From contig CM043698.1 in the NCBI GenBank assembly GCA_023935145.1, positions 71,421,501-71,485,500 of the forward strand: a DNA stretch of 64,000 bases, in the 5' to 3' direction. The translations under genes were made by a program, and so were the position numbers. The notes beneath the pieces were generated by a model. It had not been told where the DNA came from and did no database searches. It saw nothing but the letters and a program-made list of their open reading frames with translations. The DNA comes from Bretschneidera sinensis. Its lineage: Eukaryota > Streptophyta > Magnoliopsida > Brassicales > Akaniaceae. Shown here piece by piece: positions 17,311 to 58,330 of the stretch (position 1 is its first letter; every line of letters begins with the position of its first letter).

Positions 17311-17320
17311 AAAGAAGTAT

Positions 17321-35242: not shown

Positions 35243-38101
35243 AGTTATTTCATGACAATATCTTTTAGTTGACTTTGGCTTCCCGTCTATTTTTGACATA
35301 CAAAAATTTGATTACCAAACCGAGATGTTAACGGTAAACTTTCTTCAATACGAGAGCGAAGAAACCTTTTGATTTTAGTTCTTGTTGCTCGAACTCATTA
35401 TGACAAATAAAAGCAAACAACCTTATATATATTAAAACAAAAAAACGATAATATAATAAGTTTGGCAATATGAGAAATGCACTGTCATACACCATAAACA
35501 ACTAATCCAACCTGAAATTTGCTAACCAGCCTAATAAAATATATGATTTTATACTAGAAAAAAATGGGGATAGTTTTATTATAAAAGTGAATTATTTATG
35601 AAAGTTATTTGCTTCAGTACCTAAACTTGTTGAAATATATCTTGAATTTTGTGAGGCTCGTATGTGTTGTTTATATGTGTGACTTTCATAGTGCTCAATT
35701 GAATATTTTTGAAGTCACGAAGTAAGAGTGTGGTAAATTGTTATAAGAGCTTACACCATTGAAAAGTCTCATAATAATCTGAACAAATTTTTTTAGTTAT
35801 TGCATGACAATCTCTTTTAGTTGACTTTGGTTTCCCATCTGTTTTTGACATACAAAAATTTGATTACCAAACTGAGATGTTAACGGTAAACCTTCTTTCA
35901 ATACGAGAGCGAAGAAACCTTTTGATTTTAGTTCTTGTTGCTCGGACTCGGTTATGATAAACAAAAGTAAACAATCTTACATATATTAAAACGAAAAAAA
36001 GATAATATTATAAGTTTGACAATATGAGAAATGCACTGCCATGCACCATAAACCACTAATCCAACCTGAAATTTGCTAACCAGCCTAATAAAACATATGA
36101 TTTTATACTAGAAAAAAAGGGGATGGTTTTATTATAAAAGTGAATTATTGATGAAAGTTATTTGCTTTAGTACGTAACTTTGTTGAAATATAACTTGAAT
36201 TTTGTAAGACTCATATGTGTTGTTTATATGTGTGACTTTTATAGTGCTCAATTGAATATTTTTGAAGTCATGAAGTGAGAGTGTGGTAAATTGTTATCAG
36301 AGTTTACACCATTGAAAAGTGTGAGATTACATTGAAAAGTCTCATAATAATCTGAACAAAAAATTCTAGTTATTGTATGAAGATCTCTTTTAGTTGACTT
36401 TGGCTACTCGTCTGTTTTTGACATACAAAAATTTGATTACCAAACCGAGATGTTAACGGTAAACCTTCTTTCGATACGAGAGTGAAGAAACCTTTTGATT
36501 TTAGTTCTTGTTGCTCGGACTCGGTTATGACAAATAAAAGCAAACAGTCTTACATATATTAAAACGAAAAAATGTAATATAATAAGTTTGACAATATGAG
36601 AAATGCACTGCCATTCACCATAAACCACTAATCCAACCTGAAATTTGGTAACCAGCCTAAAACATATGATTTTATACTAGAAAAAAAGGGGATGGTTTTG
36701 TTATAAAAGTGAATTATTGATGAAAGTTATTTGCTTCAATACGTAAACTTGTTGAAATATAACTTGAATTTTGTGAGGCTCATATGTGTTGTTTATGTGT
36801 GACTTTCATAGTGCTCAATTGAATATTTTTAAAGTCACGAAGTAAGAGTGTGGTAAATTGTTATCAAAGTTTATACCATTGAAAAGTGTGAGATTACATT
36901 GAAAAGTCTCATAATAATATGAACAAAAATTTTTTAGTTATTGCATGACGATCTCTTTTAGTTGACTTTAGCTTCCCATCTGTTTTTGACATACAAAAAT
37001 TTGATTACCAAACCGAGATGTTAATGGTAAACCTTCTTTCAATACGAGAGTGAAGAAACCTTTTGATTTTAGTTTTTGTTGCTCGGACTCGGTTATGACA
37101 AATAAAACAAACAGTCTTACATATATTAAAACGAAAAAAAGATAATATAATAAGTTTGACAATATGAGAAATACACTGCCATACAGCATAAACCACTAAT
37201 CCAACCTGAAATTTGCTAACCAGCATAATTAAACATATGATTTTATACTAGAAAAAAGGGGGATGGTTTTATTATAAAAGTGAATTATTGATAAAAGTTA
37301 TTTGCTTCAGTACGTAAACTTGTTGAAGTATAACTTGAATTTTGTGAGGCTCGTATGTGTTGTGTATATGTGTGACTTTCATAGTGCTCAATTGAATATT
37401 TTTGAAGTCACGAAGTAAGTGTGTGGTAAATTGTTTTCATAGTTTACACCATTAAAAAGTGTGAGATTACATTGAAAAGTCTCATAATAATCTGAACAAA
37501 TTTTTTTAGTTATTGCATGACGATCTCTTTTAGTTGACTTTGGCTTCCGGTCTGTTTTTGACATACAAAAATTTGATTACCAAACCGAGATGTGAACGGT
37601 AAACCTTCTTTCAATACAAAAGCGAAGAAACCTTTTGATTTTAGTTCTCGTTGCTCGGACTCGGTTATGGCAAATCAAAGTAAATAGTCTTACATATATT
37701 AAAACAAAAAAAAGATAATATAATAAGTTTGACAATATGAGAAATGCACTGTCATACACCATAAACAACTAATCCAACCTTAAATTTGCTAACCAGCCTA
37801 ACAAAACATATGATTTTATACTAGAAAAAAAGAGGGATGGTTTTATTATAAAAGTGAATTATTGATGAAAGTTATTTGCTTCAGTGCGTAAACTTGTTGA
37901 AATATAACTTGAATTTTGTGAGGCTCGTATGTGTTGTGTATATGTGTGACTTTCATAATGCTCAATTGAATATTTTTGAAGTCACAAAGTGAGAGTGTGG
38001 TAAATTGTTATCAGAATTTACACCATTGAAAAGTGTGAGATTACGTTGCAACAAACTGTATATCTCAATATTGTTATTAGAGTTTACATCATTGAAAAGT
38101 G
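35243..38101 (+). repeat. five tandem copies of a repeat of about 570 bp
   Basis: The word AGTTATT(G/T)CATGA recurs at 35243, 35795, 36368, 36936 and 37508, giving spacings of 552-573 bases, and the intervening sequence is alike throughout (for example TTTTGACATACAAAAATTTG in each unit). There is no long open frame. Most units contain TTGTTATCAGAGTTTAC, which resembles a tRNA-Met primer site. The last unit merges with a short local duplication (ATTACGTTGC.ACAAACTG at 38040 and 38107). Confidence 0.9.
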
Positions 38102-38463
38102 TGAGATTACGTTGCGACAAACTGTATATCTCAATTCTTTGTTATTTCGTTCAAACAAGAGTGTAATATCGATGACAATGACACCAACGTGGTGAGCCTA
38201 CGAGTTTTTAAATTATATTCACATAATAGTGTGTCTTAAGTGCTATATATTTGCACGATTGTTGTAGTGCTCAATTTAGTATCCTTTTAAGTAACTGAGT
38301 TGGGTATAACAAATTTATCAATCCATTTGATTGTGGAATGAAATATTGAATATCATATCATTGACACATTAATATATAATTCAATTTAAATCCAAATGAA
38401 TTAATTTTTTTAACTAAATTAAGCATGGATATCCAGGGAAAATCGAATTTATTGAAGGAAGAT
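38102..38463 (+). repeat. 362-bp direct repeat, left copy, bordering the endogenous virus
   Basis: It begins TGAGATTACGTTGCGAC and ends GAAGGAAGAT. It is nearly identical in order and equal in length to 55220-55581. To its right, virus sequence begins; to its left lies the tandem array. Confidence 0.9.
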
Positions 38464-38466
38464 CTT

Positions 38467-39954
38467 CTCAACTGGCATATACCCAAGCAAAATATTAATG
38501 GGATATATCAAATAGGAACATTTGATTTCAAAACTGATTATTCAATTAAGACAACAGAACAAACTTATTCCATCAAAAACGAAAGTGAGAGTATTAAATT
38601 ACTTTCTTTATCAGCAATCCAAAAACGCAAACAAGAAGGATTTAGATATTTACACTTAGAATTGGTCCAAGTAGCTATCAAACCTTTATATCGATTGGGC
38701 ATAGATACTCCTGTTATGATGATGTTTAGAGATACCAAACATCTTAACTTTTCAAATTCATTGTTATCATTGATACAATCAAATTTACATAATGGACCAG
38801 TTTATTTCAACTGTTATCCAAATTTCACCATAGACTTGCATGATCCTAATATTCTTGACACATTAACCTTAGATATCCAATTAAAAGGTCTGGACATCAA
38901 AACTGGAACAAAAAATCTAATATTGATATTTAAGGTGTTTTATAAAGTCATGAAAACTAAAGTTAATCCCAAAGGCCTTCTTTAAACCAAACCAGGAAAA
39001 ACTCTATTATTAGAGGTAAACACTTTTCATGCCAATACTATAACCCCCAAACTTTTGAAATGGGATCAAATTACGATCCCTGACTGTTGGAAATTTGATG
39101 AATTATGCCCTACAGGAAACATTGTTAATAGCAATGTTTCCCAAATTGAAGAAAACAGATATGGAAGTGTTGTTATTAGGTTTGCACCTAATACACCTCT
39201 TCATCCTCCTCGTAATTCCAGAATATCTAGTTCTAGAAAATTTAGATCTCCATCATATGAAAACCCCCAAATTATTCCCCCAAGGAATAGCTTTGACGTT
39301 TCTTCTTCTAGAAACTCTCTAAACCTTGTAGGAGTGAATTTCGATCCTATAATTCCCAAAAGCTTTTATACAGAAACTAATTCCTTCAAATCAGCTATTG
39401 ATCAATCTCAAATAGCAGAATCCTCCAAACAGGCTTTAAGAAACCCTTCTCCTACTAAGTCTGATATGTATGTATATGATGAACTAAATGTCATCATGAG
39501 TTCAAATTTTGAGATTGACAAAATTAAATTGAAAAATGATTTCTTATCTGAAGCAAATAAAGCAAAATCAGATTGGTTTATAGCAAACTTTTCTGAGGTA
39601 TCAAGATCTCAAATTAGAGAAGAATGGTACAATCATATGAAAGAAATACAAAGTAATATGTATTTCTATGATTTCTTTGAAATATATACATTTAATAATA
39701 AAATTTATAATCCTTTTACAAAAAATCATCCTGATTTAGAAAACGCCAAAGAAATAGATGTTATTCAACAGTTAGAACAATTGTGGACAACAACTAGTAA
39801 CCAAACATCTTTATCTGTACATCCCCCTTTACAAGAGATAACTGTCAAAATTCCCCATTTACAAACTCAAATCATAGCCTCTTCCTTTAAACAAGGATCT
39901 GGCGCTGATGATCGAGAAGTTAAGTTTAAAGACATAAATAATATTTACTGCTAA
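38467..39954 (+). pseudogene. pararetrovirus ORF1, movement-protein region (first copy)
   Basis: The region aligns residue by residue with the second copy at 54180-55213. It carries features of caulimovirid movement proteins: a beta-rich core (YFNCYPNFTIDLHD, LTLDIQLKGLDIKTGTKN) and the closing IPDCWKFDELCP segment, followed by a Ser/Arg/Pro-rich linker (39150-39330). A TAA at 38983-38985 stands where the second copy has a Gln codon. Another TAA ends this part at 39952-39954. The ATG at 38425 that opens this frame belongs to the 362-bp flanking repeat, not to the virus, so the true viral start is not visible here. Movement proteins widen plasmodesmata for cell-to-cell spread; this copy is broken. 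Confidence 0.75.
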
Positions 39955-41995
39955 AACAACTATACTAACCAAAACCTACATACTTTGTCTACTTAAGTAG
40001 AGTCCATGTCTACTACCATAAACTCAATTGACCAAAAGATTAGTACACCAAGTCCAAAAGCCCCCGCGAGAGAATTCACTACGCCTATTCAAAAACCTAT
40101 CACACCCCAACTATCAAAACCAATTTTCACTCCACCCAATATTGACCGAGAAAACTTAATAAGACTTAAAAATGATACCAATAAAGAATTATTACGAGAA
40201 ATAGATGATAAATTAAAAGTATTAACAATTAATAACCAAATAGAAAGACCCTCAAACAATATTAATATAATAGAACAAGATATTATCAATGAAATAAAAG
40301 ATTCTGTTAATAATTCAAGACCCAGTGAAATTAACAAAATTTATAGAAGAAATTTTAGAGGCACCACTACCACAAACTAGAAATTACTACCCAAGACCTA
40401 CACCACCTGATCTTCAATATGAAGATGCCTCTAATGATGCAAGATCAAAATATGATGACAGTTCTATTTGTGAGTGGAATATTGATGGTCAAAGTGAACA
40501 TCAAATATTGAATATACTCCAAGAAATGACAATAGCAGCTACGGCCTACAAAACAAAACCTGATAATTCTGATAAGAAAATTGCTTACATCCTTACTGCT
40601 GGTTTCACTGGTGCATTAAGAGGATGGTGGGATAATTACTTATCAGATCAAGATTGTCATGATGTTCTTGAAGCCGTAATTCAAACTTACACAACCCAAA
40701 CATTTCAAGATTCTGAAACTGAGAATACAACTTCTAGGACTATACCAGTATACCAAGAAAATGCTGTTGAAACTCTCATATTTGCCATCACCAAACACTT
40801 CATAGGAGACCTAGAAAAATTTCAAGAAAGAAATTTGGAAATACTTTCAAATTTAACCTGTCCAACTTTACAAGACTTTAGATGGTATAGAGATGTTTTT
40901 CTTGCCAAAGTCTTTATTAGAAAAGGTTGCAATAATTCATATTGGAAAGAAAGATTTATATCCGGACTTCCGAAATTATTTGCAGAAAAAGTGAGAAGAA
41001 GGATAAGAGATAAGAATAATGGATCTATACCATATGATAACCTCACCTATGGTGATCTAATCAACTTCGTGAATAACGAAGGATTACCTATATGCACCGA
41101 TCTCAGATTAAAATCAAAAATGAAATCAGAATTAAGCCAAAGCAGAAAAGAATTAGGATCATTTTATAGCCAATATGGCTATGAAACCCTAAGAGCCCCT
41201 TCTGCTATAAACAAAAGGAAAAGAAAATTTTTCAAGAAACAAAATTATAAAAAGCCTACAAAGATTTTCCCTACATCAAAAAATTATAACAAAAAGACTA
41301 CGAAGAATAAAACTCAAAGTCCATCAAAAACTTGCTTCAAGTGTGGAAGGCTTGGACACTGGGCAAAGAATTGTAGAGTCAAACAAAAAATCAATGAATT
41401 AGATATCGAAGAGTCTATGAAACAGCAATTAACCAAGATCATGATAAATGACTCCCAATCAGAAAACAAAGATTCATCTTCTGATAATGAGGAGGTCATT
41501 TATGAGATTCAAGAAAATACAGATTCTAAAGAGTCCATTGACTCACAATGTGATTGTGAAGATGGCCTCTGCTTTTGCAAATCTGTTAATATGATCACCT
41601 CGCAAAAAGAATTTCTTTTAGACATAATAGACAAAATAGATGATCCAGTAATAAAAAGAGATTATTTGACAAAATTAAGAGATCTTATCCATGAAGAAAA
41701 TAAAACCAAGAAACCTGAGCCATATAGCCTTGAAAGAATTTTTGAAAAACGATTCCAAAAGACCAAAGTAGCAACTACCCAGGATTTACAAACAGAAGTA
41801 AATTTGATAAAAGAACAAACCAAAGAAATTCAAAAAGATACTATTGAATTAAAAGTAAAAATGATCAACTTAGAAATCAATAACTTGAAAGAATCAATTA
41901 CGACACAAGTCAATAAAACCGAAGTTCCTGAAACTTCCACCTGCCAAAACCTAATCAATATTAATGATGAATCCAAAGATGGTTTTGTTAATTGA
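39955..41995 (+). pseudogene. pararetrovirus ORF1, capsid (coat protein) region
   Basis: The frame of the previous part continues with an in-frame TAA near 39994, then 125 codons from 40006. A frameshift in 40325-40380 moves to a frame open for 556 codons. Typical capsid features are GWWDNYL, a segment resembling other caulimovirid coat proteins (YWKERFISGLPKLFAEKVR), a Lys-rich stretch and the RNA-binding knuckle CFKCGRLGHWAKNC at 41333-41374 with all four ligands intact. The C-terminal third is acidic, then coiled-coil-like (KEIQKDTIELKVKMINLEI). A TGA at 41993-41995 separates it from the protease in the same frame. Confidence 0.8.
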
Positions 41996-43972
41996 ATAGA
42001 AAGGATGCATTACCAGAAATGGTACATCAACATTTCTATTGTCATTAACAAAGAATACCATCTCAACACCACTGCCCTTGTCGATTCCGGTGCTGACCAG
42101 AACTGCATCAAAGAAGGTCTTATACCTACAAAATATTATGAAAAAACCACTAAAAGGTTAAACACTGCCAGTGGTTCAAAATTAAATGTAGAATACAAAA
42201 TCACAAACTCTTATATATGCAATGACGGATATTGTTTAAAGGCTCATTTTGTCCTGGTAAAAAATATACATCAAAACATTATTTTAGGAACACCCTTCCT
42301 AACCCAAATCTATCATTTCTATGTCAACCATCAAGGAATAGAAACTAATATTTTAGGACAAAACTTATTCTTTCCATTCTTACAACCTGTTGACACCAGA
42401 GAATTAAATTTACTCCAAAATAATACTTTGTGCAAACAAATAAATTTAATACAGAGTAACAAGGCTCATATAAACTTTCTCAAAGAAGAAATAAATTATC
42501 AAAAAATTGAACAACAGATTCAACAATCACAAATCCAATCCCAGATTAAAGAGCTTGAAGAATTGTTCAAAAAGGAAATCTGTGCTGATCGTCCCAATGC
42601 TTTTTGGGAACGAAAAAGACATATAGTTTCTTTGCCATATGAACCAGGCTTTGATGAGAAGAATATTCCATCTAAGTCCAGACCTATACAGATGAATCAA
42701 GAATTATTAAAATATTGTCAAGAAGAAATCAAAACCCTTTTAGGCAAAGGTCTTATTAGACCAAGCAAATCCCCCTGGAGCTGCTCTGCCTTTTATGTTC
42801 AGAAACAAGCTGAACTCGAAAGAAGAACTCCAAGACTTGTCATCAATTACAAACCACTCAATAAAGTCCTGCAATGGATTAGGTATCCAATACCTAATAA
42901 AAGGGATCTTCTCAACAGATTACATGATGCAACTATATTTAGCAAATTTGATTTAAAATCAGGATTTTGGCAATTACAAATAAATGAAAAAGATAAATAT
43001 AAAACAGCTTTTAATGTCCCATTTGGTCATTACGAATGGAATGTAATGCCCTTTGGACTAAAAAACGCACCTTCAGAATTCCAGAATATTATTAACAATA
43101 TCTTCAATGATTATTCCAAATTTAGTATCACATATATTGATGATATATTAATATTTTCAAAATCAATAGATCAACACTTTTAGCATTTGAAAACATTTTT
43201 CCAAATCATCAAGACTAATGGATTAGTCTTGTCTATGACAAAAATGAAATTATTTCAAACAAAAGTTAGATTCTTAGGACATGTAATTTATCAAGGAACT
43301 ATCAAACCTATTGATAGGTCTATTGAATTTGCAAATAAATTTCCCGATGAAATAAAAGACAAGACTCAATTACAAAGGTTTTTAGGATGCTTAAACTACA
43401 TATCTGACTTCTTTCCTCAGCTCAGACAAATCTGTGAACCGTTATAAAAAAGGCTTCGCAAGAATCCTATCCCATGGTCACAACAACACACTGATGTGGT
43501 CAGATTACTTAAATCCAGGGTTGTGAGTCTTCCTTGCTTAGGAATTCTTAATCCTCAGGCAAAAATCATCATTGAAACAGATACATCTGATATAGGATAT
43601 GGAGGTATTCTCAAACAAATCCTTCCTCAAAACTCTAATGAACAAATTGTCCGATTCCATTCTGGCATATGGCTTGGAGCACAAAAAAATTATTCTACTA
43701 TCAAAAAATAGATTTTATCAATTGTTTTATGTATTTCCAAATTCCAAGATGATTTATATAATAAAACCTTTTTATTACGAGTAGATTGCAAATCAGCAAA
43801 AGAAATTTTACAAAAGGATGTTCAAAATCTTGTTTCTAAACAAATATTTGCCAGATGGCAAGCAATATTGAGTGTCTTTGATTTTGATATTGAATACATC
43901 AAAGGAGAGAACAATTCCCTGCTTGACTTCCTCACACGGGAATTTTTGCAGAATCCAAGTGATAAAGCATGA
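41996..43972 (+). pseudogene. pararetrovirus ORF1, protease, reverse transcriptase and RNase H
   Basis: One frame carries, in order: an aspartic protease with TALVDSGADQNCI at 42070-42108; reverse transcriptase with LVINYKPLNKVL, FSKFDLKSGFWQLQI, TAFNVPFGHYEWNVMPFGL and the intact catalytic YIDDILIFSKS at 43133-43165; and RNase H with IIETDTSDIGYGG (43567-43605) and FDFDIEYIKGENN near its end. In-frame stops at 43181-43183, 43445-43447 and 43709-43711 break it, all downstream of the RT active site. The final stop TGA at 43970-43972 overlaps the ATG of ORF2. RT would copy the pregenomic RNA in the capsid. No integrase follows RNase H, which separates this from Ty3/gypsy. Confidence 0.88.
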
Positions 43973-44261
43973 GTACAAATCAGAAAGGGAAGCAGAAGGT
44001 GCCATCACCTTCAAACAAACCTCAAACTCTGGCAGATTATGCCACAAAAAGCCAAAACCAAAATCAAAACCAAATCCTAATGCAGCAATGAACCCCACAA
44101 AGACCAAACAGATTTGTCTCCCTTGAAGAATTCCCAAATCTTTTACCCTTATCTTATGCTCAAACATTATCTTCTCAACAACCGTCACCCACTCAAAACC
44201 CCAGCCAATATATCCAAAAACCACATCATGAATATATTAGATGTGCAAGCCTTGATAGACC
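43969..44261 (+). pseudogene. pararetrovirus ORF2, 5' part
   Basis: The ATG at 43969-43971 overlaps the ORF1 stop as ATGA, an arrangement that suggests coupled reinitiation. The segment is Gln/Asn/Ser-rich at first (QNQNQNQILMQQ), has one in-frame TGA near 44090, then FVSLEEFPNLLPLSYAQ. It is cut at 44261 by the gag-only retrotransposon and continues at 52792. Function is unknown; I recognise no domain. In florendoviruses a second ORF of unknown function lies in this position. Confidence 0.65.
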
Positions 44262-47200
44262 TGATTATGCCCAAAGTATAACACGGTTATTATAGTACGG
44301 CTTTGGGGTGTCGATTCCACAGGGAAACAAGTTAAGTACAAAGGAAAATGTGTGAACCTTAAAACGAACAATAAAAGTTACACGAAAGATTTTTGGGTTT
44401 TGATGGTGAAATAATGTAAGAAAAATTGCATAAATATAAAGAAAATATAAATAAGAAATAACAAGGTTCCGGGAATCCTCCTTAGGTTCGTTCCCTATTT
44501 CCACTCTTGATTCAATTGATTTTATCTCGATTGCAAGTTTCACATCCCAAACAAGCAATCAGAATATATTCAATCAAGCACATTTATAACTCTAATATAA
44601 TTGCTACAAATTACTCATTGATTTTGGTTCAAGCACACATGACCGATCTTGAAGATTATCAAGAAACGATAATATATCTTAAAAGAAAATATCACAGTAA
44701 TGGACAATCAATAAAATAAATCTACCGGAATCAATCACATCCAAACAACCTCAAAGGAGGAGAAGGATGCAATCACTGGATTAAGAGAGTCTAAAAGAAG
44801 AAGAATAAAAAGTACATCTATCACATGAACTCAAATCCTTCTTACTTAATCGATGAATAATTTACAAACAATATTCAACAATAAATCTATACAACCGAAT
44901 CAAGAATAGGAAATAAGGAACAATAAATCCCTAAGGATTCATCCTTTTCCCTTGTATGAAGACTAGTTGGCCATGGAAATCAAGGTGGAAGAACAATAAG
45001 GATGCTCTCCCCTTGATTTGGCTATGAAGTTCAAGGTGGATGAACAATATGGATGTTCTCCCCTTGATTTGTAGCCAAAGAAAACTTGGAAAGAAAATGG
45101 AAGAATGCTGGATTTGGATCCCTTGGATCCTCTCTTTTTTCTCTCTTCATTGCTTTCTCTCTTCAATTCTTTGAATGCCCGGCTGCACACTCCTTAAGGA
45201 GGTATTTATAGATTACAAGTAGTAGCTAGGGGTATTTTGGTCTTGTAAAAATGGCACTTGCTCGCCCTAATCAGGTCAAGAGGCGAGTGGGCCATACTGT
45301 GCGTCTGGGCATGCTGTGTGTTTGGGCCTGCTGTGCTGGCCTGAACTGTTTCCACTAAAACTGCCATAACTTTCTCTAGAAAAATCCTTTTTACGAACTG
45401 TTTGATTCTCCAGAAAATAGACTTCCGGATCTTTCTAAGCATATATAGCTCATCTCCTGGTTCTTCCTACATCAATACAGTTTAATCTAAAAATTTGATT
45501 GATCTGTACGAGAAATTCTGGCAATTTAGTGTCAGCTTGTATGCAGAAGTGCACACACTAGTGTGCCTACCCTTAAATTGCTCCAAAGTGATGCACACAC
45601 TTGTGTGCAGTCTTCTGACTCACTGTAATTTATTATTCCAATCTTGGTTTAGACGAAAATCATCTTTAAGTCATGTTTGGACATGTCTAAATCTTGAACA
45701 AATACCAACATCAACATGCAAGAACTTTTGGCGCTTTAAACATAGATTGCTTTATCATCTCTTTTGGACTCAAAGCACCAGAAAATGCATCGAAATAGAT
45801 CAATGATCCAAAAAGGATAATTTAGAATTGTTAAGGTAAAAACGAGTAATAAAACCCTAGATCAACCTTAGCATGCTAACAAATAAGTATTGTTTAGATG
45901 CATTTTATGGTTCTTATCACAACCCCCAACTAGCTTATTGCTAGTCCCTAGCAATTCAAGTGAAAGACAAGAGATGAATTCTTTATTTAGAAATCAAAGC
46001 AAAATACAGCAATGCTGGCGTTAACTAAGAGTGATTCAAAAATCTTTGTCTCAAAAATCATGCATAACATACAACACATAGAATCATTAAACATCACTCA
46101 AGTCCAAGAATAATCCAAATGTCAATCTTAGAATCGTTATCGACTCTTAACATCCATCTTACCACAATACATTAGTCCGAACACCCAGATGATTTTATGC
46201 ACAACGTAGCATGAATAGAAGTCTTGGCCTCTAAAAACATATTAAATTGCATGACATCAATCACAAATCAAGCTCCATAAGCTCACTTTTCAAATCACTC
46301 TCCGCTATGTAGAAAAATCACACTACATCGGATCAATAGGTCTTTAATAAGCTTGCAACGTTAGGCTAGATTAAAGGTCAAGAAAGAACGGGAAAGTTTA
46401 AACAAATAAAAGAACTAAGTCTCTTAATTTAAACATAACCATTTTATGCACAAGATAACCTTACTTCAACACTCAACTCTTTCAACCATTTTTCGAGCAT
46501 TTCTCACAATAAATCATCATTTTCTTTTTTTCTTTTCTTTCTTTGTCATAATTCACATTTTTCTTTTATTTTGGCATAAGACCATTCACCTTCTCTTTCA
46601 ATCTTTTTTTTTTCTTTTCCACAACCCCCAACTTATCTCTTTTAATGTACTTGGGTAATGGTAGTAATATTTTCTCATATTTCCACCCTTACTCCTTTTA
46701 AGTGCTTCTCACAACATGTGTATAACTAAGTTCTTTTAAATGAAAAGTAAGGATAAAATATCTTTTGGCTCATAAAGGTAAGTAAATGGTTTATCGAAAG
46801 AAACAAGGCTCAATTTTTCTTTTCAAGAAAAAGGATCAAATAGGTGACAAGCGATAAATATAACAAGGTTAAGTTAAAACGGCTCAAACGGTCCAAAAAT
46901 GGCCTACATCATATCCTAAGTAGTGTGCATGCTATGATTTTCGCCTCAAGTGATTATCAAATAAGTTCTAGAGGTTGTTGAGACCGCAAAAGTATTCACA
47001 AAACAATCGCACATAAAACTTCTCCAAATGCTTTAGACTAATCATGCAAACTTACCACAAACCAGAGTCTCAAACCAAAGAAAAATTGACACTTAATTTA
47101 TTCTCAAAGCGAAGCAAGATTTTACTTCTTCTAAATGTTATATGCTATCTCGATTAAGCTCTTATCATTGACATGTGAATTGACTACAAGGCTAACTCAA

Positions 47201-47373
47201 AGCATGCTAAAAACAAACAAAAAGGTAAAATGACATAAAGCAGTTCAATGAAAAATAGGAATATGTTTCCTCCACCCCCAACTTAAAATAGACATTGTCC
47301 TCAATGTGAAAGCATAAGATAAGGAAACTCCCTTTGTAGCCAAAAGTGCACAGAAGCTGAAAATTGTGTACCA
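44262..47373 (-). repeat. 3' LTR of the gag-only element
   Basis: On the minus strand it starts TGGTACACAATT and ends GGCATAATCA. It contains three similar words (GAACAATA.GGATG.TCTCC near 44993-45065) and several CACAACCCCCAACT blocks (45918, 46620, 47272) whose complements look like polypurine tracts. Confidence 0.85.
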
Positions 47374-47818
47374 CCATATGAACTGCTTCGTATATTTGTC
47401 CTTGAAAAAGAAATACAAAAGTAAAACTGGAAAACAACAAAATACTAATAATAAACCAGAAAAATAATTAAAAACAAAAAATAAAAGGATATGCTTTGGG
47501 GTGCCTCGCATGAGCGCTAAGTTTTACGTCTTCAGCAAGACTCTCTTATTCTCTCCTAGACAAACATGAGTTGAATGCAGCAACAATTGCTTTACTGTTA
47601 AATTTGCTGCTTGTGTGCTGTGGAGAGACCTTAAAGATGTCATCAGTAACATCTGCAGATTTTGGCTCGATATATGCTCCTGTGAAGCCATGGGTGAGGG
47701 TATATACTTGGTGGTTGTTGTCCACATCCTCTGATTTGTTCGGTGTTGGGATGTGTAACGACTTACCACTAAGTGTCTCAATGGCATTCACCTCCTCTTT
47801 CTTCTGTTGCGTTTGGTG

Positions 47819-49243
47819 CTAACCATAGGATGTGGACTGAGCTTGGGAAGGGAACTTACCTCGCTCAGTCACACTCAAATAGCTCATCAGCTTGGAAACT
47901 TGGCTCTTTATCTCTTTATGTTCTTCAACAACCTGCACAATTAAAGATTCAAGCCTTTGATTTGTCTTCCCATGTACTTCAATAAAAGTATGGAAAGTGT
48001 CTTCTAAAGAACTCCTAGAAGATACAGGTGCATGATATGGTTCATGATATGGTGCAGAGGGTTGTGCAAGCTGCTGGTTTTCAGACTTCCAGCTGAAATT
48101 TGGGTGATTTCGCCATCCTGGATTATAGGTATTAGAGAAGGGTGCAGAAGGCTTCGTGTACATGCCTAAGGTGTTACATTGTTCCTTATACATCCCTCTC
48201 ATCTCAACAAATGTGGGGCACTCTTGGGCGAGATGGTCTACTCCACCACACACAAAACATGGTTCAAAAGATTTTGCATGAGTAACCACGTGTGTTGGCT
48301 TTAAGCTCTTAGTCTTTAATACCTCTAGTTCTCTAGTGAGCATTTCGACCTTGGCCTTAAGGTTATCTTTTTCCCTAACATGGTGAATTCCACTACCATT
48401 TGGGTGCTCTATAGGTCGTGACCTATTTGTGCTTTCAGTAGCACTAGGTCCAGTCCAAGTGTGAGCTTTTTCAGCAAGCTCATTGAGGTACTCTATGGCC
48501 TCATCAGGATCTTTCTCCAAGAACCCACCATTACACATCATCTCTACAAATTAGCGTTCTCTATAGGTAAGACCCTCATAGAAATAGCTCACTAAACGCC
48601 AATTCTCATACCCATGGTAAGGGCACATACTCAATAACTCTTTAAATCTCTCCCAAGACTGATACAAAGTCTCGCTGTCCTTTTGTGCAAAGGTGGAGAT
48701 TTTCCTTTTCAAAGCATTGGTCTTATGTTGGGGAAAGTATTTATTGAAAAAAATTCGAGTCAACTCAGTCCACGACCCAACAGATCGTGGTCTTAGTGAG
48801 TATAGCCAACTCTTAGCTCTATCCTTCAAAGTGAAAGGAAAGAACTTAAGCCTAACAATGTCATTGGTTTCATCGTGACTATGAAAAGTCGCAACTACTT
48901 CCTCAAACTCTTTAATGTGCACATATGGGTTTTTGTTATCAAAGCCATGAAAAGTAGTGAGTAATTGAATCATTCCTGGTTTAAAATCTAGTTGGCGAGT
49001 ATTGGCTGGAAACATGATGCATGATGGTGTGGCTGTGCGTGTAGGGTGGAGGTAATCCTGAAATGCCCTGGCAACATTTTCATTACGATTATCGACCATG
49101 TTAACAAAATCCTCTAAATTTTCTGATGGGGGTGCACTATGGTTTGATCTAGGCGATGTTTCACCAATGGAGGTGGAAGGAGAGGGTAACTCTAATTCGG
49201 GTCCTCTAATGAATCTACCTCGCGAATCTCTCGGTTTAAGCAT
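47819..49243 (-). pseudogene. gag of the gag-only element (Athila/Tat-like), one internal stop
   Basis: From 49243 the minus strand reads MLKPRDSRGRFIRGPELELP, then the retrotransposon gag domain (KPGMIQLLTTFHGFD, LKDRAKSWLYSLRP, NKYFPQHKTNALKRKI, ETLYQSWERFKELL). A single TAA at about 48551-48553 interrupts it; the same frame continues for 240 codons with a coiled-coil segment and a knuckle CFVCGGVDHLAQEC. After 47819 another frame gives VNAIETLSGKSL, similar to the ..TLRSGK.. start of Athila-type protease, then ends. Gag would assemble particles. Keeping a nearly intact gag while pol is absent is the TR-GAG pattern. Confidence 0.85.
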
Positions 49244-49263
49244 GCACCAATTAATTTAGAGGG

Positions 49264-49545
49264 GAAACTAAATAAAAAAAATAGAATAATAAATAAATAA
49301 ACAAATAAATAAAAAAACAGAATAATAAACAAGTAAATAAAACAGAATTATAAACAAAATAAAAAAAACAGAATAATAAACAAGTAAATAAAACAGAATA
49401 ATAAACAAATAAATAAAATAGAATAATAAATAGATAAATAAAACAGAATAATAAACAAATAAATAAAACAGAGTAATAAGCAAAAAAACAGAATAATAAG
49501 CAAAAAAATAAAAAAGAATAATAAACAAATAAATAAAACAACAAT
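49264..49545 (+). repeat. low-complexity A-rich repeat between gag start and primer site
   Basis: Imperfect units of about 28 bases built from ACAGAATAATAAACAAATAAATAAA. Long open frames on the minus strand here (Leu/Phe/Tyr only) are artefacts of composition. Confidence 0.85.
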
Positions 49546-49657
49546 AAAGGAATGATATGACTATATTTACAAACTGCTTAAAAGAAAGATATTTACGATT
49601 TTTTTTATTTGATCGTTACACTCAAAGTTGACAAGTTTCCTTGTACTTAAAAGTGTT

Positions 49658-49675
49658 TCCCCGGCAACGATGCCA
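49658..49675 (-). promoter_or_regulatory. primer-binding site of the gag-only element (tRNA-Asp type)
   Basis: The minus strand reads TGGCATCGTTGCCGGGGA five bases after the LTR end. It is one base from TGGCGCCGTTGCCGGGGA, the tRNA-Asp site known from Athila/Tat elements. It proves minus orientation. Confidence 0.85.
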
Positions 49676-49680
49676 AAATT

Positions 49681-52600
49681 TGATTACGCCCAAAGTATAA
49701 CACGGTTATTATAGTACGGCTTTGGGGTGTCGATTCCACAGGGAAACAAGTTAAGTACAAAGGAAAATGTGTGAACCTTAAAACGAACAATAAAAGTTAC
49801 ACGAAAGATTTTTGGGTTTTGATGGTGAAATAATGTAAGAAAAATTGCGTAAATATAAAGGAAATATAAATAAGAAATAACAAGGTTCCGGGAATCCTCC
49901 TTAGGTTCGTTCCCTATTTCCACTCTTGATTCAATTGATTTTATCTCGATTGCAACTTTCACATCCCAAACAAGCAATCGGAATATATTCACTCAAGCAC
50001 ATTTATAACTCTAATATAATTGCTACAAATTACTTATTTATTTTGGTTCAAGCACACATGATCGATCTTAAAGATTATCAAGAAATGACAATATATCTTA
50101 AAAGAAAATATCGCAGTAATGGACAATCAATAAAATAAATCTACCGGAATCAATCACATCCAAACAACCTCAAAGGAGAAGAAGGATGCAATCACCGGAT
50201 TAAGAGTCTAAAAGAAGAAGAATAAAAAGTACATCTATCACATGAACTCAAATCCTTCTTACTTAATCAATGAATAATTTACAAACAATATTCAACAATA
50301 AATCCATACAACCGAATCAAGAATAGGAAATAAGGAACAATAAATCCCTAAGGATTCATCCTTTTCCCTTGTATGAAGACTAGTTGGCCATGGAAATCAA
50401 GGTGGAAGAACAATAAGGATGCTCTCCCCTTGATTTGGCCATGAAGTTCAAGGTGGATGAACAATATGGATGTTCTCCCCTTGATTTGCAGCCAAAGAAA
50501 ACTTGGAAAGAAAATGAAAGAATGCTGGATTTGGATCCCTTGGATCCTCTCCTTTTTCTCTCTTCCTTGCTTTCTCTCTTCAATTCTTTGAATGCCCGGC
50601 TGCACACTCCTTAAGGAGGAATTTATAGATTACAAGTAGTAGCTAGGGGTATTTTGGTCTTGTAAAAATGGCACTTGCTCGCCCTAATCAGGTCAAGAGG
50701 CGAGTGGGCCGTGCTGTGCGTCTGGGCCTGCTGTGCGTTTGGGCCTGCTGTGCTGGCCTGAACTATTTCCACTAAAACTGCCATAACTTTCTCTAGAAAA
50801 ATCCTTTTTACGAACCGTTTGATTCTCCAGAAAATAGACTTTCGGATCTTTCTAAGCATATATAGCTCATCTCCTGGTTCTTCCTACATCAATACAGTTT
50901 AATCTGAAAAGTTGATTGATCTGTACGAAAAATTCTGGCAATTTAGTGTCAGCTTGTATGCAGAAGTGCACACACTAGTGTGCCTACCCTTAACTTGCTC
51001 CAAAGTGATGCACACACTTGTGTGCAGTCTTCTGACTCACTGTAATTTATTATTCCAATCTTGGTTTAGACGAAAATCATCTTTAAGTCATGTTTGGACA
51101 TGTCTAAACCTTGAACAAATACCAACATCAACATGCAAGAACTTTTGGCGCTTTAAACATAGATTGCTTTATCATCTCTTTTGGACTCAAAGCACCTGAA
51201 AATGCATCGAAATAGATCAATGATCCAAAAAGGATAATTTAGAATTGTTAAGGCAAAAGCGAGTACTAAAACCCTAGATCAACCTTAGCATGCTAACAAA
51301 TAAGCATTGTTTAGATGCATTTTATGGTTCTTATCACAACCCCCAACTAGCTTATTGCTAGTCCCTAGCAATTCAAGTGAAAGACAAGAGATGAATTCTT
51401 TATTTAGAAATCAAAGCAAAATACAGCAATGCTGGCATTAACTAAGAGTGATTCAAAAATCTTTGTCTCAAAAATCATGCATAACATACAACACATAGAA
51501 TCATTAAACATCACTCAAGTCCAAGAATAATCCAAATGTCAAACTTAGAATCGTTATCGACTCTTAACATCCATCTTACCACAATACATTAGTCCGAACA
51601 CCCAGATGATTTTATGCACAACGTAGCATGAATAGAAGTCTTGTCCTATAAAAACATATTAAATTGCGTGACATCAATCACAAATCAAGCTCCATAAGCT
51701 CACTTTTCAAATCACTCTCCGCTATGTAGAAAAATCACACTATATCGGATCAATAGGTCTTTAATAAGCTTGCAACGTTAGGCTAGATTAAAGGTCAAGA
51801 AAGAATGGGAAAGTTTAAACAAATAAAAGAACTAAGTCTCTTAATTTAAACATAACCATTTTAAGCACAAGATAACCTTACTTCAACACCCAACTCTTTC
51901 AACCATTTTTCGAGCATTTCTCACAATAAATCACCATTTTCTTTTTTTCTTTTCTTTCTTTGCCATAATTCACATTTTTTTTTTATTTTGGCATAAGACC
52001 ATTCACCTTCTCTTTCATTCTTTTTTTTTTTCTTTTCCACAACCCCCAACTTATCCCCTTTAGTGTACTTGGGTTATGGTAGTAATATTTTCTCATATTT
52101 CCACCCTTACTCCTTTTAAGTGCTTCTCACAACATGTGTATAACTAAGTTCTTTTAAAAGAAAGGTAAGGATAAAATATCTTTTGGCTCATAAAAGTAAG
52201 TAAATGGTTTATCGAAAGAAATCAGGCTCAATTTTTCTTTTCAAGAAAAAGGCTCAAATAGGTGGCTAGCGATAAATATAACAAGGTTAAGTTAAAACGG
52301 CTCAAACGGTCCAAAAATGGCCTACATCATATCCTAAGGAGTGTGCATTCTATGATTTTCGCCTCAAGTGATTATCAAATAAGTTCTAGAGCTTGTTGAG
52401 ACCGTAAAAGTATTCACAAAACAATCGCACATAAAACTTCTCCAAATGCTTTAGACTAATCATGCAAACTTACCACAAACCAGAGTCTCAAACCAAAGAA
52501 AAATTGACACTTAATTTATTCTCAAAGCGAAGCAAGATTTAACTTCTTCTAAATGTTATATGCTATCTCGATTAAGCTCATATCATTGACATGTGAATTG

Positions 52601-52791
52601 ACTACAAGGCTAACACAAAGCATGCTAAAAACAAACAAAAAGGTAAAATGACATAAAGCAGTTCAATGAAAAACAGAAATATGTTTCCTCCACCCCCAAC
52701 TTAAAATAGACATTGTCCTCAATGTGAAAGCATAAGATAAGGAAACTCTCTTTGTAGCCAAAAGTGCACAGAAGCTGAAAATTGTGTACCA
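49681..52791 (-). repeat. 5' LTR of the gag-only element
   Basis: It matches 44262-47373 along its full length with few differences. Confidence 0.85.
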
Positions 52792-53640
52792 CAAAATTTT
52801 CCCTGCAGGTTTTCACTTTATTCCTGAGGATTCAAAGAAAACCCAAAAATTCTATGAACTGATACTGATTGATTCTCAGTCAGCAGAGATAACATACACA
52901 AAAGACCCAACAAATTCCGACTTTATTACCTACTCCAAATGCAAAATACTCAAGGTGGTTTCCCCAGAAAAAATCAAAGACCATTACCAACCAAAAGCCT
53001 TTTCCATACCATTCGTGCCTCCCACCTATAATTATCATGACTATCAAATGACATGGTACAACATGTTCTTCATTAGACCCAAATCACATTCATGGTTCAT
53101 ATTTTTTGACAAAAAATGCAAAATTGATCTTCCAGTATGGTTTTTCGACTTGTGGATTTTGTTTGGCAACAGTCTAGCCATTCTGCCTCCTCCTATCAAA
53201 GAAGCCCTCATTCATTTCAAAGAAAACACCACTGAAGAAAAAAATATTCTCATGAAATGCTTTTTCATTCAATTTTCTCTATTCCATGGATTATTTCATG
53301 GGATTATGTTATTACAGGAACCCTTTCAGACATCTTGGCCATCAAAAGAAACTTCAAAGTTAAATGGTGGGCAAAATATGACTGCTCACTGGCCACCATC
53401 CAAGTTATTAAAAATTGGTTTTTTGACAATCCTCGTTATTTCAAAAATTACCAAAACAGACAAAATTCAAGTTCTTCTGGAATTAAGAAATTATCAAAAC
53501 AAGAAAAGAAGAAAAAATTGTTAGAAGAGCTGTCTCAATTATCTGATAGTGATGATAGTACCCAGTCTCCAGATGATGACCTCAACAAGACTCCTGAACA
53601 GTATGCTCAGGACCCGTATGACGCATTTGATCTCTCTTAA
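52792..53640 (+). pseudogene. pararetrovirus ORF2, 3' part
   Basis: Directly after the retrotransposon the frame reads HKIFPAGFHFIPEDSKKTQ and stays open to about 53260, where a frameshift occurs. The other frame then runs to a TAA at 53638-53640. The region is rich in aromatic residues (WFIFFDKKCKIDLPVWFFDLW). The C-terminus has a Lys-rich then Asp/Ser-rich tail (KKLSKQEKKKK, SDSDDSTQSPDDD). No enzymatic motif is recognised. Together with the 5' part, ORF2 would have about 380 codons. No second copy of ORF2 is present in the window for comparison. Confidence 0.6.
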
Positions 53641-53900
53641 AAAAAAAAAGCAAAAAGGATGCCCGACAAAGCATCTCTGAAAAATCAAAAAAGCAACAGG
53701 TGACCGACAAAGCATCTCTAAAAAGCAAAAGCCAAAGCTGAAGATTCAAAGCATCTCTGAAAAGCAAAAGCAAAAGCTGAAGATTCAAAGCATCTCTGAA
53801 AAGCAAAAGTAAAAGCTGAAGATTCTCCCAAAGTATTTCTGCAAAGCAAAAGCAAGAAGAAAATAAATGATTCCCCTGTCAAAGACATGATTTCTCTGAA
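53641..53900 (+). promoter_or_regulatory. repeat-rich viral intergenic region, enhancer candidate
   Basis: Four or five imperfect repeats of about 39 bases (core GCATCTCTGAAAAGCAAAAG, then AAAGCTGAAGATTC) follow the ORF2 stop and lie about 40-230 bases upstream of a TATA box. Repeated motifs in this position are typical of caulimovirid promoter enhancers. Function is inferred. Confidence 0.6.
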
Positions 53901-53938
53901 CACAGATTTCAAACCATTTGAAGTCCACCAAAAAGCCC

Positions 53939-53946
53939 TATAAATA
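53939..53946 (+). promoter_or_regulatory. viral pregenomic RNA TATA box
   Basis: CCCTATAAATATG lies about 300 bases after ORF2 and about 230 bases before the second movement-protein region, the expected site of the full-length RNA promoter. The leader at 53970-54179 has no long frame. I did not find a clear tRNA-Met primer site there. Confidence 0.6.
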
Positions 53947-54179
53947 TGTATTCAGATAATATAATGGCTAGAGTTGATTCTGAGAGAGCTTTACTTGTAA
54001 AAGAGCGAGTGTGTGATCAGTTGTGAGAGTGAGATCAGTTGTTTGCTTGCTGTTTTACACTGTAAGCTTCTGTCTCTTTCAAACTCATATCTTGTAATTT
54101 CTATTTCATATATAAATATCAAAAGTTTATATTTTCAAAGTTTATATTTCAATAATTACAGTTATTGTTTTCGATCCTG

Positions 54180-55213
54180 CTCAACTGGCATATACCCAAG
54201 CAAAATATTAATAGGATATATCAAATAAGAACATTTGATTTCAAAACTGATTATTCAATTAAGACAACGGAACAAACTTATTCCATCAAAAACGAAAATG
54301 AGAGTATTAAATTACTTTCTTTATCAGCAATCCAAAAACACAAACAAGAAGGATTTAGATATTTACACTTAGGATTGGTCCAAGTAGCTATCAAACCTTT
54401 ATATCAATTGGGCATAGATACTCCTGTTATGATGATGCTTAGAGATGCCAGGCATCTTAACTTTTCAAATTCATTGTTATCATTGATACAATCAAATTTA
54501 CATAATGAACCAGTTTATTTCAACTGTTATCCAAATTTCACCATAGACTTGCATGATCCTAATATTCTTGACACATTAACCTTAGATATCCAATTAAAAG
54601 GTCTGGACATCAAAACTGGAACAAAAAATCTAATATTGATATTTAAGGTCTTTTATAAAATCATGACAACTAAAGTTAATCCCAAAGCCCTTCTTCAAAC
54701 CAAACCAAGAGAAACTCTATTATTAGAGGCAAATACTTTTCATGCCAATATTATAACCCCCAAACTTTTGAAATGGGATCAAATTACGATCCCTGACTGT
54801 TGGAAATTTGATGAATTATGCCCTCCAAGAAACATTGTTAATACCAATGTTTCCCAAATTGAAGAAAACAGAGATAGAAGTGTTGTTATTAGGTTTGCAC
54901 CTAATACACCTCTTCATCCTCCTCGTATTTCCAGAATATCTAGTTCTAGAAAATTTAGATCTCCATCATATGAAGACCCCCAAATTATTCCCCCAATGAA
55001 TAGCTTTGACGTTTCTTCTTCTAGAAACTCTCTAAACCTTGTAGGAGTGAATTTCGATCCTATAATTCCCAAAAGCTTTTATACAGAAACTAATTCCTTT
55101 AAATCAGCTGTTGATCAATCTCAAATAGCAGAATCCTCCAAACAAGCTTTAAGAGACCATTCTCCTACTAAGTTTGATATGTATGTATATGATGAACTAA
55201 ATGTCACCATTAC
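54180..55213 (+). pseudogene. pararetrovirus movement-protein region, second (redundant) copy, truncated
   Basis: From CTCAACTGGC on, it repeats 38467-39496 with scattered substitutions and no stop in about 340 codons. It lacks the TAA found at 38983 in the first copy. Unlike the first copy, it is preceded by genuine viral leader (GTTTTCGATCCTG). No ATG is seen in frame at the start of the conserved region. It breaks off after DELNVT near 55210, followed by about 10 bases of unmatched sequence and the right 362-bp repeat. It cannot encode the C-terminal linker or capsid. Confidence 0.85.
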
Positions 55214-55219
55214 TAAGTC

Positions 55220-55581
55220 TGAGATTACGTTGCGACAAACTGTATATCTCAATTCTTTGTTATTTCGTTCAAACAAGGGTGTAATATCGATGACAATGAC
55301 ACCAACGTGGTGAGCCTACGAGTTTTGAAATTATATTCACATAATAGTGCGTCTTAGGTGCTATATATTTGCATGATTGTTGTAGTGCTCAATTTAGTAT
55401 CCTTTTAAGTAACTGAGTTATGTATAACAAATTTATCAATCCATTTGATTGTGGAATGAAATATTGAATATCATATCATTGACACATTAATATATAATTC
55501 AATTTAAATCCAAATGAATTAATTTTTTTAACTAAATTAAGCATGGATATCTAGGGAAAATCGAATTTATTGAAGGAAGAT
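55220..55581 (+). repeat. 362-bp direct repeat, right copy, bordering the endogenous virus
   Basis: It has the same limits as 38102-38463 (TGAGATTACG to GGAAGAT). Here the ATG of GCATGGATATC is followed by a TAG at once. Confidence 0.9.
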
Positions 55582-56361: not shown

Positions 56362-56402
<41 letters not shown>

Positions 56403-56834
56403 CTTAATAATTAAAAAATATAGCATAAAAATTTATTATTTAAATAGTGCTATACAAAATAAATAATAATAATATAACATAAAAATATTAAAAAAAATAA
56501 ACTATAAATTAAGTAATATAATACATATTTAAATAAAAATATTCAAAATAAAAATATAACAAAATACATTAAATAATTGCATATTATTATAGAAAATATT
56601 GATATGTAAGATCATTAATTTTAATATTTTGAAACAAATCATCAAAAAATGTTTTAAAAAATGATTAATTACTATGTAATAAAATTTAGTCAATTGATGA
56701 AATAAAATAAATTTCGAAAAGGAATAAGTTTAGAATATTTAATATCTATACAATTTTTTAATTTAAGTTTTATCACATTAAAAAATTCATCAATATAATC
56801 ATTTTTATTTACATTATTGATTCTTAATTTTATA
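55582..56834. other. very AT-rich stretch with a (TA)n tract, no gene
   Basis: No open frame or recognisable element was seen. An uninterrupted (AT)n run lies at 56365-56401, about 430 bases left of the second viral fragment. Confidence 0.6.
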
Positions 56835-57456
56835 AATGTTGGTGGTCATAAATCTGAACTTTATCAAAGTAGAAAAGAATTAAGATCATTTTGTGCTAAT
56901 ATAGTTATAAAATATTAAAATCCCCTTCTACAAATGAAAAAAAAGAATAAAAAAAAATCTTCACAGGAAATAGATTTAATAAAACTTTTGATCAACTGAA
57001 AAAAAGGGTTTTCAAGTTTACTAAGAAAAAACAAATTCTTCCAAAGCTTGTTATAAATGTGAAAAAATTAGGCATTGGGCAAAGAATTGTAAAGTAAATT
57101 AAAAAAAAAAAACAATGAACTTAATATAGATAATGATTTTAAGGATCATTTAACAAAATTAATAGTTAATAAATCTAAATAATAAGAATATGAGAATTCA
57201 ACTGAAGATTGTGTTTTTGCAAATAAAAAAAATACTTCAGATGATTCTTTTTTCAGAATCAGAATGTGATTGTGAAGAATGAATATGTTATTGCAAAACA
57301 ATTAATAAAATAGAGGATCCAGATATTAAGAAGGAATATTTACTTAAGCTTAAAGTTATTACTGTTTAGAAAAAGAAATTATAAGAAACTGAACCCTACA
57401 ATATGAATAAAATATTTTCTCCACATTCTTTGAATACTAAACCAGTTATTATTCAA

Positions 57457-57940: not shown

Positions 57941-58330
57941 GAATAAATAAAGAATATCACCTCAATACAGTTGCACTTATTGATTCTAGTGCGGATCACA
58001 ACTGTATAAGAAAACGACTTATTTCAACATCTTATTATGAAAAAATCAATGAAAGACTTAATGCTGATAGTGGTTCTAAACTTCAAAGTAGAATATAATA
58101 TTTCAAAAGCTTATATTTGTAACAAAAAATATTGTGTTAAGATATCTTTCATTCTAATTAAAAATATTAATCAACCAATTATACTTGGAACACCATTTTT
58201 TTACATAAATTTATCATTTTGTTGTTGATCAAGTAGGAATTCATACTACAATAATGGGTCAAAAGGTTTTTTTTGAATTTATGTCTTCAGTAGACATAAA
58301 ATAATTAAATTTACTTTAAGATAATACAAA

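What the first reader, a model, noticed from the sequence alone, without database searches (positions are those of the whole stretch)
38464..55219. Terminally redundant endogenous pararetrovirus of about one genome unit plus 1.0 kb
The movement-protein region occurs at 38467-39496 and again at 54180-55210, with capsid, polymerase, ORF2 and regulatory region between them. Subtracting the retrotransposon, the repeat distance is about 7.18 kb, a normal circular genome length for Caulimoviridae. The locus therefore records integration of a longer-than-unit or concatemeric DNA rather than a random fragment. The first copy has a stop at 38983 that the second lacks, so the copies have decayed separately or arose from different molecules.
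Basis: partly seen in the sequence, partly recalled or inferred. Interest (0 to 1): 0.75.

Follow-up and report, generated by a model that had tools for sequence, protein, structure and literature searches.

The report
Plant virus relic with repeated ends
A decayed plant virus sits in this plant chromosome as slightly more than one genome length, and the stretch of plant DNA it landed in is itself duplicated on both sides, which points to capture of viral DNA while a chromosome break was being patched.

Summary
A caulimovirid relic lies at 38464-55210; its first 1,034 bases recur at 54177-55210 (37 differences in the 1,029 compared). Three things were missed.

(1) The flanks are duplicated too. 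Host DNA at 38102-38463 recurs after the second copy at 55220-55581 (8 differences in 361). It resembles the neighbouring host tandem repeat, and a search of the 1.21 Gb assembly found it only here. The relic sits inside a ~362 bp target-site duplication.

(2) 7.18 kb is not the native unit. Same-strand pairs elsewhere are spaced 7,651 and 7,673. Here 410 bp (primer-binding site, leader, ORF1 start) are missing at the unit-unit joint and 42 bp at the retrotransposon.

(3) Both copies can be placed as starting at the same viral base, and the joint lies at the primer-binding site, where 7 of 10 breaks in 30 copies fall.

Junctions show 5-base microhomologies and a templated filler, as in break repair. 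The copies decayed independently after integration (dN/dS 1.4; 20 left-private and 15 right-private changes). One source molecule or two cannot be told.

Longer-than-unit florendovirus loci are in print: a well-resolved member of a known kind.

The parts
35243..38051 (.). host tandem array, about five units of ~567 bp, in which the virus landed
   Evidence: in the 1.21 Gb assembly the search gave 13 matches: five units and one short piece at this locus, and 7 short weak matches elsewhere
38102..38463 (+). left copy of the duplicated host target (X), diverged end of the array
   Evidence: 97.5% to 55215-55581; 8 differences in 361; alignment to the 3' part of all 5 array units (X from 38157 or 38197-38199 to 38315-38350), empirical P<=0.01 each of 200 shuffles, units not independent; three matches in the genome, all at this locus, one of them 48 bp
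38459..38463 (+). 5-base microhomology AAGAT at the host/virus left junction
   Evidence: X' ends GGAAGAT and then host; 24 of 26 other copies read AAGAT at this viral point
38464..39497 (+). left terminal repeat: movement-protein region without its N terminus; stop at 38983
   Evidence: (PF01107)
39498..43972 (+). rest of ORF1: DUF7588, coat, zinc knuckle, protease, RT, RNase H; further stops at 39952, 39994, 41993, 43181, 43445, 43709 and a frame change near 40.3 kb
43969..44261 (+). left part of ORF2, overlapping the ORF1 stop, in another frame; stop at 44089
44262..52791 (-). nested LTR retrotransposon in which only gag was found; LTRs 44262-47373 and 49681-52791 (75 mismatches in 3,111); no target-site duplication, 42 bp of viral DNA missing at the site
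52792..53640 (+). right part of ORF2 (frame change within 53.24-53.52 kb)
53641..54181 (+). intergenic region with 39 bp repeats and TATA-like box; ends 6 nt before where other copies have the tRNA-Met primer-binding site
54177..54181 (+). unit-unit joint with 5-base microhomology CTGCT; 410 bp present in other copies are absent
   Evidence: 410 in L007, L009, L016, L018, L020; joint found once in the genome at <=3 mismatches
54177..55210 (+). right terminal repeat (movement-protein region, no stop)
55211..55219 (+). filler TACTAAGTC, templated: with the next 3 bases a 12-mer that also lies at 39453-39464
   Evidence: 0 of just under 20,000 decoy 150-bp windows match as long; in the right copy itself the match is now only 8 bases
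55220..55581 (+). right copy of the duplicated host target (X'), then unduplicated host

Best explanation
An episomal florendovirus-type caulimovirid DNA was captured while a chromosome break was repaired at the end of a local host tandem array. The host target was opened with ~362-base staggered ends that were filled in, giving the X/X' duplication (inferred). The viral DNA carried an end at its primer-binding-site discontinuity. That end was joined through CTGCT to a second viral end inside the movement-protein gene, losing 410 bp. The same second end joined the left host end through AAGAT. The far viral end (39497) joined the right host end after a short templated copy. Shown: the duplications, microhomologies, filler, 410 bp loss, near-identical start of both copies, clustering of breaks at the primer-binding site, and independent later decay. 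Inferred: order of steps, enzymes (polymerase-theta-like end joining), staggered-break fill-in. The copy is not a transcription unit for a whole genome: its only intergenic region lies near the right end, ORF1 and ORF2 carry stops, and a retrotransposon splits ORF2.
For: Flank duplication 38102-38463/55220-55581. X resembles the host array and was found only at this locus. X (8/361) and MP (37/1,029) divergence is compatible with one event (Fisher P 0.23). Nonsynonymous/synonymous ratio between copies 1.37, 31 N and 6 S. Templated filler. Joint found once in the genome. In 30 places holding the end of the intergenic region, 7 of 10 breaks in the next 395 nt fall in the first 25 nt, at the primer-binding site, P 4e-7 (our own joint is one of the 7).
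Against: No empty site could be inspected, so the target duplication is inferred from one haplotype. LEFT shares two minority states with L007, one of them also in three other copies, and groups weakly with it (89/78), RIGHT weakly with L006 (86/46), a hint at two molecules that is not significant. The other 6 of the 7 breaks at the primer-binding site are each followed within about 75 nt by another viral piece, so joining of separate viral pieces is common here. An in-frame ATG stretch in X resembles one MP homologue (P 0.007-0.02 for the best of 14), which briefly suggested that X is viral; other copies have a different N terminus. The coincidence of start bases was noticed after the fact.
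Confidence: 0.75

Rival explanations
1. Two linear viral molecules, each broken at the same movement-protein position, were joined tail to head and integrated together, like ordinary concatemer capture.
For: Two same-strand pairs at unit spacing; viral pieces broken at the primer-binding site run on into other viral pieces in 6 of 6 other cases; weak variant signal LEFT+L007, RIGHT+L006.
Against: Needs two molecules broken at nearly the same base. None of the other 28 loci begins there: 26 run on natively for at least 70 bp upstream and 2 start further inside the gene.
Confidence: 0.3
2. The right movement-protein copy was added after integration by tandem duplication or gene conversion from the left copy.
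For: Explains why both copies begin at the same base (38464 = 54177).
Against: MP divergence (3.6%) is not lower than X (2.2%) or LTR (2.4%) divergence; the copies share only one minority state, which three other copies also have.
Confidence: 0.08
3. X was already a tandem duplicate of the host array and the virus entered exactly between its two copies.
For: The locus is duplication-prone: five array units and a 66 bp duplication.
Against: Array units are 91-93% alike and X aligns to them only over about 120-200 bp with gaps, while X and X' are 97.8% alike, as young as the viral repeat.
Confidence: 0.12
4. X is the viral leader and ORF1 start, and the right end is a shuffled viral piece.
For: In-frame ATG directly before MP; similarity to one homologue.
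Against: Twenty-six other copies have another sequence there; X resembles the host array and was found nowhere else in the genome.
Confidence: 0.02

Closest known systems
Endogenous florendoviruses (Geering et al. 2014, PMC4241990)
   Same: 7.2-8.5 kb unit, ORF1 with MP-CP-zinc finger-protease-RT-RNase H, separate ORF2 in another frame, greater-than-unit-length loci (a 1.2-mer in Prunus persica), capture at breaks proposed
   Different: The passages read there describe short stretches gained or lost at insertions; here a ~362 bp target duplication, a templated filler and a joint lacking the primer-binding site are resolved. ORF2 homology to a named florendovirus could not be tested
Endogenous Petunia vein clearing virus and other tandem caulimovirid integrants (review PMC10377300, passages)
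   Same: head-to-tail arrangement longer than a unit
   Different: Here the joint is deleted and the only promoter region lies near the right end
Patch-mediated tandem duplications in plants (passages of PMC7971508; Vaughn and Bennetzen 2014 and Schiml 2016 seen only as references)
   Same: tandem duplication of the broken target, in rice observed beyond 1 kb
   Different: Here viral DNA (about 8.2 kb without the retrotransposon) lies between the two copies
T-DNA integration in plants (PMC8395108, passages)
   Same: microhomology and filler DNA at junctions
   Different: incoming DNA is viral, with one end at its own primer-binding site

Membership tests
Caulimoviridae | 30K movement protein in the same element | tested here: met
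   PF01107, E 2.4e-17 left and 2.2e-18 right
Caulimoviridae | caulimovirid coat domain with zinc knuckle | tested here: met
   PF22909 E 2.7e-13, PF00098 E 2e-6
Caulimoviridae | RT of caulimovirid type rather than Ty3 | tested here: met
   best PDB sequence is 'Enzymatic polyprotein' 8r0s (150.9 bits; that this is cauliflower mosaic virus is recalled) against 'Transposon Ty3-G Gag-Pol' 7q5b at 106.6 bits. The tree has only one 85-residue Ty3 row on a very long branch and does not test this
Caulimoviridae | no integrase | tested here: met
   no integrase domain in the 10 stop-to-stop pieces scanned; 43973-44261 was not scanned
Caulimoviridae | tRNA-Met primer-binding site in the virus (judged on sister copies) | tested here: met
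   exact core site in 18 of 30 places examined in the assembly. It is absent from this locus at <=2 mismatches, where the joint has removed it
Florendovirus | ORF1 domain order MP-CP-zinc finger-AP-RT-RH in one polyprotein | tested here: met
   order along 38464-43972, with stops and one frame change
Florendovirus | second ORF, different frame, 45-58 kDa | tested here: met
   ORF2 begins at 43969 in another frame than the end of ORF1; counted by length only, over its frame change, about 394 codons or roughly 45 kDa, so borderline
Florendovirus | ORF2 homologous to florendovirus ORF2 | tested here: inconclusive
   0 of 77 candidates at E<=0.001; no named ORF2 at hand
Florendovirus | unit 7.2-8.5 kb | tested here: met
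   7,651 and 7,673 between same-strand pairs
Florendovirus | RT in the florendovirus clade | not testable with these tools
   no row named as florendovirus or petuvirus among the 120 listed of 2,454 homologues
Florendovirus | (TA)n repeat within 1 kb (an association, not a requirement) | tested here: met
   (AT)18 at 56365, 784 bp from X'; one of 4 such tracts in 64 kb, so weak
Petuvirus | single ORF, no ORF2 | tested here: not met
   ORF2 present; but a citrus caulimovirid nearer to petuvirus resembles florendoviruses in layout (PMC4241990), so layout alone does not exclude kinship

The most novel reading that the evidence does not exclude
Virus and host were opened in the same way: nicks on opposite strands, with filled-in 5' overhangs. 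A linear viral DNA with one end at the primer-binding-site gap closed on itself through CTGCT with only one strand sealed, so its other end stayed a nick at 38464. A second nick on the opposite strand at 39497 opened the circle with 1,034-base overhangs, whose fill-in made the terminal redundancy from one molecule, while 362-base overhangs in the host made the flank duplication. This would explain why both copies start at the same base, and gives a general route by which circular pararetroviruses become slightly longer than one unit without replication or concatemers.
Probability: 0.25. Interest if true: 0.6.

Novelty: new member of a known kind. Interest (0 to 1): 0.45.

Why it matters
How pararetroviruses without integrase enter plant chromosomes, and why many loci are longer than one genome, is inferred mostly from decayed copies. 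This locus keeps both junctions, the target duplication, a templated filler and the joint between units, and a many-copy family in the same genome shows that breaks cluster at the primer-binding site. That turns 'captured during break repair' into a testable set of junction predictions.

Tried and rejected
X as viral leader: raised by an in-frame ATG and an N-terminus-like stretch, rejected by other copies, array resemblance and the genome search.

Finding named florendovirus or petuvirus references: three protein searches, a viral-contig scan (none) and plasmids (three bacterial records) gave none. The RT tree has unnamed or plant-named rows and one Ty3 row of 85 residues containing a stop (12% of columns), so it is no family test. 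The right MP piece has no PDB relative by sequence at E<=1.

One search failed by a script error and was redone.

Not done: self-dotplot of the unit with the retrotransposon taken out, and a full-length ORF1 tree; pieces were compared apart instead.

Not answered: the genome search was busy. The right host flank search did not complete, so only X and one array unit were searched in the genome.

Not tested: whether other virus loci have flank duplications; host species.
Full report
WHAT IS THERE. BLASTN of the window against itself gives the reported repeat, 38461-39497 against 54173-55210, and a second one not reported: 38097-38463 against 55215-55581. Read at the junctions, the order is host array - X - virus - X' - host. 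X ends at 38463 and X' at 55581, and the right viral copy is followed by nine filler bases and X'. Pfam (10 stop-to-stop pieces) finds MP, DUF7588, DUF7746, caulimovirid coat domain, zinc knuckle, protease, RT and RNase H in caulimovirid order; the two ORF2 pieces match nothing above a Pfam cut-off. The RT piece is closest among solved structures to 'Enzymatic polyprotein' 8r0s (150.9 bits), ahead of 'Transposon Ty3-G' 7q5b (106.6 bits). 2,454 proteins match it, best 62%; those of the 120 listed that carry an organism name are plants. Stops and a frame change break ORF1, ORF2 has a stop and a frame change, and an LTR element in which only gag was found splits ORF2.

X IS HOST DNA. X was suspected to be viral because it supplies an in-frame ATG before MP, and the stretch resembles one homologue (P 0.007-0.02 for the best of 14, 0.06-0.22 for the sum). 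Three results reject this. X aligns with the 3' part of each of the five array units, over about 120-200 bp with gaps (empirical P <= 0.01 each, not independent). In the 1.21 Gb assembly X gave three matches, all at this locus, one of them 48 bp; the full array unit was found only here, with 7 short weak matches elsewhere. The tool warns that such counts are lower bounds. Of the other 28 virus loci fetched, 26 have a different, mutually alike sequence upstream of MP and 2 are truncated further in.

THE UNIT AND ITS JOINT. In other copies 410 bp (exactly so in L007, L009, L016, L018 and L020) separate the end of the intergenic region from MP; in the right copy here these are missing. The joint is CTGCT, shared by both sides in most copies. 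The lost segment begins six bases before the tRNA-Met primer-binding site of other copies and runs past the ORF1 start. With up to three mismatches the joint was found once in the genome, here, so it is not a widespread viral variant. The LTR element has no target-site duplication (AGACC against CAAAA), and the two other copies inspected hold 42 further bases at its site. 7,183 + 410 + 42 = 7,635, against same-strand spacings of 7,651 and 7,673 elsewhere.

BOTH COPIES START AT ONE BASE. At the left junction host and virus share AAGAT (38459-38463), so the first viral base lies within 38459-38464. At the joint the first MP base lies within 54177-54182, which corresponds to 38464-38469. The two meet at 38464 = 54177 and can differ by at most ten bases; for independent breaks in 7.6 kb this is about 0.003 (my arithmetic, after the fact). 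The end of the right copy, 55210, is followed by TACTAAGTC; with the next three bases it forms a 12-mer that also lies 33-44 bases before the break point in the left copy (39453-39464), with 0 of just under 20,000 decoys matching as long; in the right copy itself, which differs from the left at 55174, the match is 8 bases. Microhomology and filler are found at plant end joining (PMC8395108, passages); that locally templated filler is typical of polymerase theta is recalled.

THE JOINT LIES AT A NATURAL VIRAL END. Thirty places match the last 20 bases of the intergenic region with up to one mismatch. In 7 of these 30 (ours included) the viral sequence breaks within the next 25 bases, that is at the primer-binding site; of the 23 that continue, 3 break in the next 370 (uniform expectation 0.63, P 4e-7). 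Copies may be partly related by descent, so P is approximate. In the other 6 of the 7 another viral piece follows within about 75 bases, often inverted, so ends at this site were mostly joined to other viral DNA. On the left side 3 of 11 copies without an adjoining intergenic region (two of the 11 are the halves of one inverted pair) begin within four bases of the start of the site. Caulimovirid DNA carries its minus-strand discontinuity there (established knowledge).

WHEN. X differs at 8 of 361, MP at 37 of 1,029, the LTRs at 75 of 3,111. X and MP are compatible with one event (P 0.23). The LTR element must be younger than the virus because it lies inside it; its divergence is lower than that of MP (P 0.046) but not of X (P 1.0). 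Between the MP copies 31 changes are nonsynonymous and 6 synonymous, ratio 1.37; neutral placement gives 26.8 +- 2.5 changed codons against 31 seen. So the differences arose mostly in the chromosome. Among 28 MP rows (LEFT, RIGHT and 26 of the 28 other loci fetched; two truncated ones dropped), 20 of 37 differing sites are left-private, 15 right-private, and 2 have both states in more than two other copies; LEFT and RIGHT share one minority state, also in L006, L007 and L009. The tree puts LEFT, RIGHT, L006, L007 and L009 in one supported group (99/92) but does not pair LEFT with RIGHT; holding them together is not rejected (p-AU 0.186). LEFT shares two minority states with L007, one of them also in three other copies. 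One or two source molecules cannot be decided.

HOW IT PROBABLY CAME ABOUT. A broken host site with long complementary ends was filled in, giving X and X'. Tandem duplications are the commonest source of insertions in the rice comparison of PMC7971508 (passages), mostly short but some beyond 1 kb, and arise at breaks with complementary overhangs in mouse and human cells (PMC8355091, passages). The viral DNA entered with one end at the primer-binding site joined to another end within MP, and with that same MP end at the left host junction. The simplest single-molecule version is a circle closed on one strand and opened by a nick on the other (the section on the most novel reading); the two-molecule version is ordinary concatemer capture. 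Every step after the sequence facts is inference.

WHAT IT IS LIKE. [quoted passage not shown] (PMC4241990; outline, section 4 part 1, section 10 and passages read). Tandem and rearranged integrants are described in the passages read of PMC10377300 and PMC1899175. Layout, ORF2 size by length and unit length fit florendoviruses; clade membership was not testable. Searches for print on target-site duplications of endogenous pararetroviruses (listings only: 8, 13 and 4 papers) showed no title or opening of an abstract that reports one, which is weak evidence of absence because only open-licence papers are held.

LIMITS. One assembly of an unnamed plant; no empty allele; the right host flank was not searched in the genome; only 40 of 695 and 40 of 681 candidates were scored.

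Noticed in passing
C2:71486846-71488390 of the assembly (L068 from 1547, L065 1-1491), 1.3-2.9 kb beyond the window end: A 1.54 kb copy of window 52076-53618 (LTR end plus the adjoining ORF2, with the same LTR/ORF2 junction; 98% over 1,491 bp, 94% over the first 53) sits inside an older inverted EPRV, like a templated patch copied from this locus.
   Followed up: partly
56820-58328 (+) and 61098-63999 (-), continuing past the window end: Pieces of an older caulimovirid, about 69-79% similar to this one, in both orientations (coat/protease on +; RNase H and ORF2 on -), so the region is an EPRV cluster.
   Followed up: partly
44262-52791: LTR retrotransposon with 3.1 kb LTRs, only gag found inside, minus strand, no target-site duplication and a 42 bp loss at the site: its two ends may come from different insertions.
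   Followed up: partly
G000 C4:71573284, 71574373, 71575462: Another virus locus in which MP segments recur at exactly 1,089 bp spacing three times; where sequence was held, the repeated segment runs from the leader to mid-MP.
   Followed up: no
30 loci L035-L064: Breaks of viral copies cluster at the tRNA-Met primer-binding site (7 of 10 breaks in 395 nt); in the 6 other than ours another viral piece follows within about 75 nt.
   Followed up: yes
35243-38135: Local host array of about five ~567 bp units plus a 66 bp tandem duplication, found in full only here in the genome.
   Followed up: partly
26393-30625 (+), 16791-17393 (-), 22234-24658 (+): Copia element with an exact tRNA-Met site at 26393, an RVT_1 fragment (probably LINE, recalled), and a Ty3-type fragment.
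   Followed up: no
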